A model generated the notes under the pieces. The model did no database searches. It was not told the origin of the DNA and was given only the letters and a program-made list of their open reading frames with translations. Shown piece after piece: positions 13,935 to 16,003 of a stretch of DNA of 64,000 nt. A program made the translations under genes and the position numbers. The stretch's first letter is position 1, and every line of letters begins with the position of its first letter. Origin of the DNA: Canibacter zhoujuaniae (GTDB taxonomy: Bacteria > Actinomycetota > Actinomycetes > Actinomycetales > Microbacteriaceae); contig NZ_JAAIKA010000001.1 in the NCBI RefSeq assembly GCF_011752015.1, forward strand, positions 620,001 through 684,000, in the 5' to 3' direction.

Positions 13935-15884
13935 TTAACGCTTAGCGAGCGCGATCAGGGCGTCGTCAAGAGTCTTCGCGTTTGCAACAATATCGGTGAG
14001 CTCGATGTCAGCTGTCGGATCTCCGAAGAAAGCATCTCCGGGCCCTTCTGCGGGTGACACGGCTTTGATTGCGCTCTTTACGGTGTGGTACACATTTTCA
14101 CCCTGCAGAGCGGCCGCACCGCGAACCTTAGCGCGCGACACACTAATATTTGGGAAGTTACCTAGGAGTGCGCGACCTTCATCGAGGCTGATCTGCCAGT
14201 TGGCGAGACTTGGCAGGTCGATTCCGAAGGCGCTCAGCGTATCCACCGCAGCATAAATTGCCAGGGAACCGCCGTTTTCAACGTTGCGAGCGGTCGCAAA
14301 CACCTGCCGGATCAACTGGTTTCCGGGTGAGGTGGGGTTTCCACCGATCATAAGAGCGGTTGAATTTTTGCCCATCATCAACGCTGACTCGTGTGCAATA
14401 GCAAGATCAGACAAACGGTCAATCAGCAGCACAACATCGTGACCGAGCTCCACAAGTCGCTTGGCGCGTTCGAGAGCGAGTTCAACAACAGTGAGTTTAT
14501 CGTCGGTCGGGCTATCTGCGGCTGCGGCGATAAGCTCGCCGTCAACACGACGGCTGAGTTCTGTTACTTCCTCAGGTCGCGCACTCACTAAGACGTGCAT
14601 AACGTGAGTTTCTGGTGATGCAGCGCCGAAGCTCTTCCCAATTTCTAACAGTGTTTCAGTTGCTCCAGTACCGCTCTGTGCTTCAATGAGCCCACGCTGA
14701 CCGAGAGCGAGGGGTGCAAACAGGTCAAATAACCGGGACACAACGGAGTTGTTTGCAGAACTGGCTACCACGGTCTGATCGGGCGATATCGGAGTCAGGC
14801 TGCTGAATTCACCGCGACTTGCCGCCTCTTCAACAGACTGGCCGTTGATGGTATCAATTTTAATAAGTGCGTTGTACTTCTGACGGCCGCCGTTTTCACC
14901 CTCACGTGGCTGCCGAATGGCACCAACTATTGCGTCACCCTTGCGGAGGTTGTGCCGCTTAACCTGGCTCAGTGACACATACACGTCTGTGGCGCCCGGC
15001 AGGTAACCGGTGGTGCGCACGAATGCGTAATTGTCGAGCACGTCAAGAATCCCCGCAATCGGCAGCAGCACGTCTGATTCAGTCAGCTCTTCGCTGTCAT
15101 CAGTGTTGCGACGCTTGCGGTCGCGTTGCCGCGTGCGCTGCCGTCCATTGCGCATCTCGCGGTCTGATTTTTGATTGTCGCCGTCTGTGTCACCGGGTTT
15201 CTCACTGTCACCCAACTTCGCAGCGTCACTCGACTTATCTACATCACCGTGCTTGTCGGCATCAGCTGCGGCACTCTCGACAGTGTTGGTGCTCTCGACA
15301 GCATCTTCGTTTTTCTCGCTTTCCGCCGTCTCTTCTTGCTTTGCGTTAGCTTTAGTGCTGCTTGCAGTTGCACGACGGCGACCGCGCTTCGGTTTTTCCG
15401 CCGCGTCGGCTGCTTCAGACGCGTCAGCGTCTTTTTGCGCCGGAGCCGCACCTGTCTCGGCGTTTTCTGCAGCTGGTGCTTCACTGCTTGCAGCAGCAGT
15501 CTTTTTAGTGGTGCGACGACGCGTAGTCTTCTTCGGCGCCTCCTCAACCACAGCAGCTTCCTCCGCTACAACAGCAGCATCAGCCGCAGGCGCTTCAGCA
15601 TCAGCCTTCTTAGTGGTGCGACGACGCGTAGTCTTCTTCGGCGCCTCCTCAACCACAGCAGCTTCCTCCGCTACAACAGCAGCATCAGCCGCAGGCGCTT
15701 CAGCATCAGCCTTCTTAGTGGTGCGACGACGCGTAGTCTTCTTCGGCGCCTCCTCAACCACTGCGGCAGAATCAGTTGGTGCTGCGGTAGCAGCATCAAC
15801 TGCGGCCGCTGTGTCAACAGTTGGTGTTGAAACGCGACGGCTGCGACGCTTCGGAGTTTCGGTCTCGGTTGTTTCTTCAACCAT
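13935..15884 (-). CDS. rho: Rho-family protein with degenerate ATPase motor
   Basis: Full-length homologue of transcription termination factor Rho at the usual rho position (thrB-rho-prfA). The chosen ATG (MVEETTETETPKRR) follows GGAAGGACTGAAA; 649 residues. Residues 1-260 are a low-complexity Ala/Lys/Arg/Glu arm with tandem repeats. From about 267 the RNA-binding cold-shock domain is well kept (GILDVLDNYAFVRTTGYLPG, then KGDAIVGAIRQPREGE). The ATPase half is not. The expected P-loop SPPKAGKTT reads AQSGTGATE (about 400-408), with no lysine. The expected VDERPEEVT reads VSARPEEVT. DSITRLGRAYN reads DRLSDLAIAHE. The R-loop EEFKGTGN and the arginine-finger SGTRKEELL are unrecognisable. Helical framework pieces such as LALERAKRLVELGHDVVLLID and ARNVENGGSLAIYA remain. 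No frameshift or stop is present. RNA binding is likely; ATP-driven translocation is unlikely. Confidence 0.85.
   Translation of the reverse strand: MVEETTETETPKRRSRRVSTPTVDTAAAVDAATAAPTDSAAVVEEAPKKTTRRRTTKKADAEAPAADAAVVAEEAAVVEEAPKKTTRRRTTKKADAEAPAADAAVVAEEAAVVEEAPKKTTRRRTTKKTAAASSEAPAAENAETGAAPAQKDADASEAADAAEKPKRGRRRATASSTKANAKQEETAESEKNEDAVESTNTVESAAADADKHGDVDKSSDAAKLGDSEKPGDTDGDNQKSDREMRNGRQRTRQRDRKRRNTDDSEELTESDVLLPIAGILDVLDNYAFVRTTGYLPGATDVYVSLSQVKRHNLRKGDAIVGAIRQPREGENGGRQKYNALIKIDTINGQSVEEAASRGEFSSLTPISPDQTVVASSANNSVVSRLFDLFAPLALGQRGLIEAQSGTGATETLLEIGKSFGAASPETHVMHVLVSARPEEVTELSRRVDGELIAAAADSPTDDKLTVVELALERAKRLVELGHDVVLLIDRLSDLAIAHESALMMGKNSTALMIGGNPTSPGNQLIRQVFATARNVENGGSLAIYAAVDTLSAFGIDLPSLANWQISLDEGRALLGNFPNISVSRAKVRGAAALQGENVYHTVKSAIKAVSPAEGPGDAFFGDPTADIELTDIVANAKTLDDALIALAKR
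15505..15761 (-). repeat. Exact 105-bp tandem repeat inside rho N-terminal arm
   Basis: 15505-15609 and 15610-15714 are identical over all 105 bases; a third copy matches for 47 bases (15715-15761) before diverging. The unit is 35 codons, so the frame is kept. The encoded unit contains VVEEAPKKTTRRRTTKK followed by an Ala-rich acidic stretch. Exact identity at synonymous positions points to recent duplication or ongoing gene conversion. Confidence 0.95.
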
Positions 15885-15921
15885 TTTCAGTCCTTCCAGA
15901 CGGGATAGTAAATCACGCAAA

Positions 15922-15935
15922 TGCTCAGCTGAGCA
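15922..15935. promoter_or_regulatory. 14-bp perfect palindrome in rho leader
   Basis: TGCTCAGCTGAGCA is fully self-complementary and lies 37 bases upstream of the chosen rho start, in the 119-base gap after thrB. It could be an operator or an RNA stem of an autoregulatory leader; rho leaders are autoregulated in several bacteria. The function is inferred only. Confidence 0.4.
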
Positions 15936-16003
15936 CATTCCAAACTGCGTGTTATTCCGTAGTAAATAGTGTTAGCCAGTTAACCGCGCGACTGCGCAAA
16001 TTG

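What the first reader, a model, noticed from the sequence alone, without database searches (positions are those of the whole stretch)
13935..15884. Rho at its normal locus with a dismantled ATPase motor but an intact RNA-binding domain
Seen: one uninterrupted frame whose cold-shock domain (about residues 267-340) matches actinobacterial Rho closely, and whose ATPase half keeps framework segments (LFDLFAPLALGQRGLI, LALERAKRLVELGHDVVLLID, ARNVENGGSLAIYA). Known: Rho needs the P-loop lysine of SPPKAGKTT, the catalytic Glu of DERPEEVT, the R-loop EEFKGTGN and the arginine finger of SGTRKEELL. Here these read AQSGTGATE, SARPEEVT, and unrelated sequence. Inference: a Rho descendant that binds RNA but cannot translocate. 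It may be a neofunctionalised RNA-binding or RNA-polymerase-binding protein, or the lineage has given up Rho termination. The many strong intrinsic terminators in this window are consistent with the latter. This is the likeliest undescribed system here.
Basis: partly seen in the sequence, partly recalled or inferred. Interest (0 to 1): 0.9.

Follow-up and report, generated by a model that had tools for sequence, protein, structure and literature searches.

The report
Motor-dead Rho kept for RNA binding
The only copy of the transcription-termination motor Rho in this small actinobacterium has lost the residues that burn ATP and pull RNA, but keeps its RNA-binding face under strong selection; related lineages lost the same residues several times independently, so some bacteria seem to have given up the Rho motor while keeping Rho as an RNA-binding protein.

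Summary
The ORF is on the minus strand (likely start 15884, stop 13935) and is the only Rho in a 1.47 Mb, about 100% complete genome. Walker A Lys, catalytic Glu, Q- and R-loops and the Arg-finger motif are gone; the cold-shock RNA-binding domain is intact. All five species of the genus share the loss. On a species tree of 71 genomes it arose independently at least four times for both K184 and E211, six times for either. RNA-contact residues F64, R66, D78 and Y80 are unchanged in all 71. Two lineages deleted the Rho C-terminus. The ATPase half still evolves under purifying selection (dN/dS 0.03-0.14; omega=1 rejected; close unsaturated pairs 0.02-0.12), so this is not a decaying gene. AlphaFold gives a Rho fold with a low-confidence C-terminus. 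Replacing the catalytic Glu in M. tuberculosis Rho abolishes ATPase, helicase and termination but leaves RNA binding (PMC4499133), which makes the natural loss interpretable. Compensation by intrinsic terminators was tested and not shown. Best reading: motor-dead Rho retained as an RNA-binding protein, exact role unknown. No description found in the literature searched. New variant of a known kind.

The parts
13935..15938 (-). rho ORF, 667 aa from first ATG (649 aa from the SD-preceded ATG at 15884); the genome's only Rho
15084..15884 (-). low-complexity N-terminal region, with a 105-bp tandem repeat at 15486-15761; no Rho_N (PF07498) domain found
15108..15152 (-). arginine-rich tract (RNGRQRTRQRDRKRR) directly before the cold-shock domain; similar tract in the sister genera
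14829..15056 (-). cold-shock RNA-binding domain (PF07497); RNA-contact residues F64/R66/D78/Y80 (E. coli numbering) intact
14232..14801 (-). RecA-type ATPase half: fold retained, catalytic residues lost
14655..14681 (-). degenerate P-loop AQSGTGATE (K181, K184 lost)
14562..14585 (-). SARPEEVT in place of DERPEEVT (catalytic E211 -> A)
14418..14483 (-). best-kept ATPase-half segment ELALERAKRLVELGHDVVLLID (Walker B Asp kept)
13938..14231 (-). C-terminal part: R-loop and Arg-finger motif unrecognisable; AF2 pLDDT about 40 over the last 40 residues
12842..13915 (-). prfA directly downstream; hom-thrB-rho-prfA order kept in all relatives examined where the contig reaches that far

Best explanation
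This is the orthologous, only Rho of its genome, which has lost ATP hydrolysis and RNA translocation and is retained as an RNA-binding protein. The Arg-rich tract plus cold-shock domain bind single-stranded RNA (the Rho primary binding site); the former RecA motor domain keeps its core fold and probably serves as a scaffold for folding or oligomerisation. Motor-driven Rho termination is therefore absent in this genus. The same outcome evolved repeatedly in the Microbacteriaceae, in graded steps (R-loop and Arg-finger changes in intermediates that still keep P-loop and catalytic Glu, then loss of these, in some lineages deletion of the C-terminus). SHOWN: sequence loss, recurrence, conserved RNA face, purifying selection, single copy, predicted fold. 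INFERRED: no ATPase or translocation, RNA binding in the cell, absence of Rho termination. UNKNOWN: the cellular role (RNA chaperone or mRNA/antisense RNA binder, or RNAP-associated factor).
For: K184, E211, R353, K326 are lost in all or nearly all of 20 fully eroded proteins (K184 kept in 5%, E211 5%, K326 0%, R353 5%), while 94% of universally invariant cold-shock-domain residues are kept. Loss is genus-wide (5/5) and recurrent: both K184 and E211 at least 4 times, either at least 6 times; F64/R66/D78/Y80 unchanged in 71/71 (tree). Codon omega for the ATPase half: 0.14 (this genus), 0.048, 0.050, 0.034 in the other eroded groups versus 0.026 intact; omega=1 rejected by 2dlnL 222-808. Close pairs with dS 0.3-1.2: ATPase half 0.02-0.12, similar to prfA. 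No second Rho or second PF07497 domain. AF2 model: pTM 0.75, Foldseek top 50 hits are all Rho, TMq 0.81. Experimental analogue: M. tuberculosis Rho E386A loses ATPase, helicase and efficient termination but binds RNA at 5.3 vs 3.5 nM and stays oligomeric (PMC4499133). Intermediates exist: Leucobacter sp. UT-8R, Ca. L. sulfamidivorax.
Against: No biochemistry. Walker B Asp and Arg valve R212 persist, so weak nucleotide binding is possible. No significant compensatory rise in intrinsic terminators. In this genus the ATPase half has a higher omega (0.14-0.18) than prfA (0.05) and the last about 90 residues evolve fast (0.43, dS near saturation), so part of the protein is under weak constraint. 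AF2 used an alignment dominated by intact Rhos, which biases it to the Rho fold.
Confidence: 0.72

Rival explanations
1. Motorless terminator: the protein still reaches RNA polymerase and, by RNA capture and allosteric inactivation alone, destabilises or arrests transcription without ATP-driven translocation.
For: E. coli Rho is reported to bind RNAP first and act allosterically (as stated in PMC8828861); NusG is present in all eroded genomes tested; slow complex dissociation by M. tuberculosis Rho with non-hydrolysable analogues was reported, then disputed (PMC4499133).
Against: M. tuberculosis Rho E386A does not terminate efficiently (PMC4499133). Eroded Rhos of this genus lack Rho_N (but so do some intact relatives). 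NusG KOW is diverged in this genome and in G093.
Confidence: 0.17
2. A decaying gene on its way to loss.
For: The C-terminal third evolves fast in this genus; motifs are eroded in a graded series; C-terminus deleted in g88 and g18.
Against: Frames are open across the genus and in the other eroded lineages; omega far below 1 in the ATPase half, and cold-shock-domain dN/dS at or below prfA in several groups; cold-shock contact residues unchanged in 71/71; whole genera carry the eroded form.
Confidence: 0.05
3. The frame is kept only as a translated leader that couples translation to prfA.
For: prfA begins 2-35 nt after rho in most eroded lineages.
Against: Coupling needs no protein sequence, yet the cold-shock domain is nearly frozen at the amino-acid level.
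Confidence: 0.03
4. An active Rho with a rebuilt, non-canonical NTPase site.
For: Core fold and Walker B Asp kept.
Against: P-loop, catalytic Glu and Arg-finger regions differ between the five sister species, with no replacement motif conserved there.
Confidence: 0.03

Closest known systems
Transcription termination factor Rho, actinobacterial type (M. tuberculosis Rho, PDB 7OQH; M. luteus Rho)
   Same: Orthologue by locus, cold-shock RNA-binding domain, long N-terminal insertion rich in charged residues, overall fold
   Different: No P-loop Lys, catalytic Glu, R-loop or Arg-finger motif; below the family's curated cut-off
M. tuberculosis Rho E386A / E. coli Rho E211A (laboratory catalytic mutants, PMC4499133)
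   Same: Same catalytic Glu replaced by Ala; RNA binding expected to remain
   Different: Natural, Glu lost throughout a genus, accompanied by loss of the other motor motifs, and the only Rho in the cell
Tropheryma-type Rho (G018, 927,303 bp genome, the size of T. whipplei Twist from memory)
   Same: K184R and E211I, cold-shock domain kept
   Different: Independent loss on the species tree; keeps a weak Rho_N match and D265, R353 and R366

Membership tests
Rho (TIGR00767) | Whole-protein score over curated cut-off 509 bits | tested here: not met
   257 bits
Rho | Cold-shock RNA-binding domain with primary-site residues | tested here: met
   PF07497 3.6e-25; F64, R66, D78, Y80 present
Rho | RecA-type ring-ATPase fold | tested here: met
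   AF2 core pLDDT 81-93, Foldseek TMq 0.81 to 7oqh; model only, hexamer not tested
Rho | Walker A lysine K184 and K181 | tested here: not met
   AQSGTGATE
Rho | Catalytic glutamate E211 | tested here: not met
   SARPEE
Rho | Walker B aspartate D265 | tested here: met
   VVLLIDRLSD
Rho | Q-loop and R-loop (secondary RNA site) | tested here: not met
   unalignable, gapped; K326 kept in 0% of eroded Rhos
Rho | Arginine finger R366 in SGTR | tested here: inconclusive
   An Arg falls in the column here and in G003, but the SGTR motif is gone and G001, G002, G004 have K, K, L
Rho | Conserved locus hom-thrB-rho-prfA | tested here: met
Rho | RNA-dependent ATPase, helicase, termination activity | not testable with these tools
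   needs purified protein

The most novel reading that the evidence does not exclude
Rho can work without its motor: in several lineages a motorless Rho still silences or terminates transcription by RNA capture and RNA-polymerase contact alone, so translocation is a dispensable layer on a separable RNA-binding function.
Probability: 0.17. Interest if true: 0.93.

Novelty: new variant of a known kind. Interest (0 to 1): 0.8.

Why it matters
Rho is described as essential in Actinobacteria such as M. tuberculosis and M. luteus, and its key residues as mostly conserved in an alignment of over 1200 species (PMC8828861, PMC4499133). Recurrent fixed loss of the motor with the RNA face preserved separates two functions that are coupled in model bacteria. 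It makes two open questions directly testable by natural experiment: how a cell controls pervasive transcription and R-loops without a Rho motor, and whether Rho has a motor-independent job. It also predicts that Rho is no bicyclomycin target in these lineages, and shows that annotation by name ('Rho present') overstates Rho termination.

Tried and rejected
(1) A second Rho or separate cold-shock-domain paralogue: none. (2) Pseudogene: rejected by omega tests. (3) Extra intrinsic terminators as compensation: two scans on 200 kb from each of 10 genomes gave no significant difference; gene calls were crude and GC differs, so this is weak either way. (4) NusG co-loss: NusG kept in all tested; its KOW drifts in G000 and G093 only, inconclusive. 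(5) Mfd: present and over its cut-off, so no co-loss. (6) Frame break in G121 hinted: the frame is open through the ATPase region. (7) First genome-contig scan found nothing; the second gave named relatives but not this genus. (9) Literature searches for Rho in Tropheryma, Microbacteriaceae, inactive or lost Rho found no description of this; most subscription papers, including the 2013 Rho survey that I recall from memory, are not held.

Full report
What is there. It sits at the usual place, hom-thrB-rho-prfA. It has the Rho cold-shock domain (PF07497, 3.6e-25) and a weak ATP-synt_ab match; as a whole it scores half of the Rho family's cut-off (257 of 509 bits). The genome (1.47 Mb, 4 contigs, completeness 100%) has no other Rho; the only other TIGR00767 hits are ATP-synthase genes, and there is only one PF07497 domain.

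The host. The family is Microbacteriaceae: contigs of relatives match, by length, Herbiconiux gentiana, Klugiella xanthotipulae and Pseudoclavibacter caeni records. The species tree puts the genus next to g14/g72 with 100% support. The named protein closest to the window's, from Leucobacter sp. UT-8R, suggests the Leucobacter neighbourhood; the genus itself stayed unnamed (Canibacter would fit from memory, unverified).

What is lost and what is kept. P-loop, catalytic Glu, Q-loop, R-loop and Arg-finger motif are lost in all five species of the genus, with different replacement residues. Over 20 fully eroded Rhos, universally invariant residues are retained at 94% in the cold-shock domain, 30% in the P-loop, 29% in the R-loop and 22% in the C-terminus. 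An Arg-rich tract before the cold-shock domain is kept. In the genus a new invariant Asn-Trp appears after the former R-loop, a hint of new constraint.

A recurrent, graded loss. In 400 Microbacteriaceae genomes, 346 score over the cut-off; genera g1, g12, g14, g30, g72 and g88 are below it in every scored member, as are single genomes of g15, g18 and g27; a few other low scores are contig-edge fragments. Mapped on a prfA+thrB+hom tree, with losses taken as irreversible, K184 and E211 were both lost at least four times (g1, part of g14, g88, Tropheryma-type) and one or the other at least six times (plus g12, g18). g30, g72, g16, g20, g94 and some Leucobacter are intermediate. g88 (8 species) and g18 lack the C-terminus; in the four checked, prfA follows 7-12 nt later. 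Deep nodes of the tree are weakly supported, so the count is approximate, but these clades are well separated from one another by intact lineages.

Selection. Codon models give omega for the ATPase half of 0.14 (g1), 0.048 (g14), 0.050 (g88), 0.034 (g30), 0.026 (intact); cold-shock domain 0.012-0.070. omega = 1 is rejected with 2dlnL 222-808 for the ATPase half. dS is saturated or nearly so within g1, so the safer evidence is close pairs elsewhere: with dS 0.3-1.2 the ATPase half has 0.02-0.12 and the cold-shock domain 0-0.05. The eroded protein is thus under purifying selection in its RecA half too, though less in this genus.

Structure. AF2 of the last 390 residues (22 sequences): pLDDT 73.8, pTM 0.75, core 81-93, last 40 residues about 40. 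Foldseek: M. tuberculosis Rho 7oqh, E 4e-33, TMq 0.81.

Mechanism. In M. tuberculosis Rho, E386A alone removes ATPase, unwinding and efficient termination but leaves oligomerisation, ATP binding and nM RNA binding, and deleting the N-terminal insertion weakens RNA binding about six-fold (PMC4499133). The window protein combines that same Glu loss with further motor losses and keeps the RNA-binding parts. The economical reading is an RNA-binding protein without motor. Whether it acts on free RNA or on RNAP is open.

What did not work. A predicted compensation, more intrinsic terminators, was not detected (g1 16/54 vs 18/98 convergent gene ends, p = 0.15; all eroded vs all intact p = 0.21).

Novelty. 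No paper found describes it; the library lacks most subscription journals.

Noticed in passing
G441, G522, G554, G563, G571 (class-level family f39; genera g128, g138): Rho below the family cut-off (473-499 bits) in complete genomes of a second, distant family; sequences could not be fetched. May be another case of erosion.
   Followed up: partly
window 15486-15761: 105-bp tandem repeat, 2.6 copies, 97% identical, encoding repeated basic/acidic blocks in the Rho N-terminal region.
   Followed up: no
G050 (same order, 96% complete, 4.4 Mb): No Rho hit, only ATP-synthase-type matches: gene missing or in an assembly gap.
   Followed up: no
L301 (NusG of this genome), L287 (NusG of G093): NusG KOW domain is diverged at otherwise constant positions in these two genomes but not in other eroded lineages.
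   Followed up: partly
L065, L082, L094 and others: Rho_N (PF07498) is not found in several Microbacteriaceae Rhos, intact (G013, G022) and eroded alike; its loss may precede or ease motor erosion.
   Followed up: partly
G023, G235, G316 (g20); G161, G258, G413 (g94); L174, L175: Otherwise near-intact Rhos in which the Arg-finger residue itself is replaced (SSTLHEE, SLTMHEE; QTLREE in Pseudoclavibacter), a possible early stage of erosion or a moved finger.
   Followed up: no
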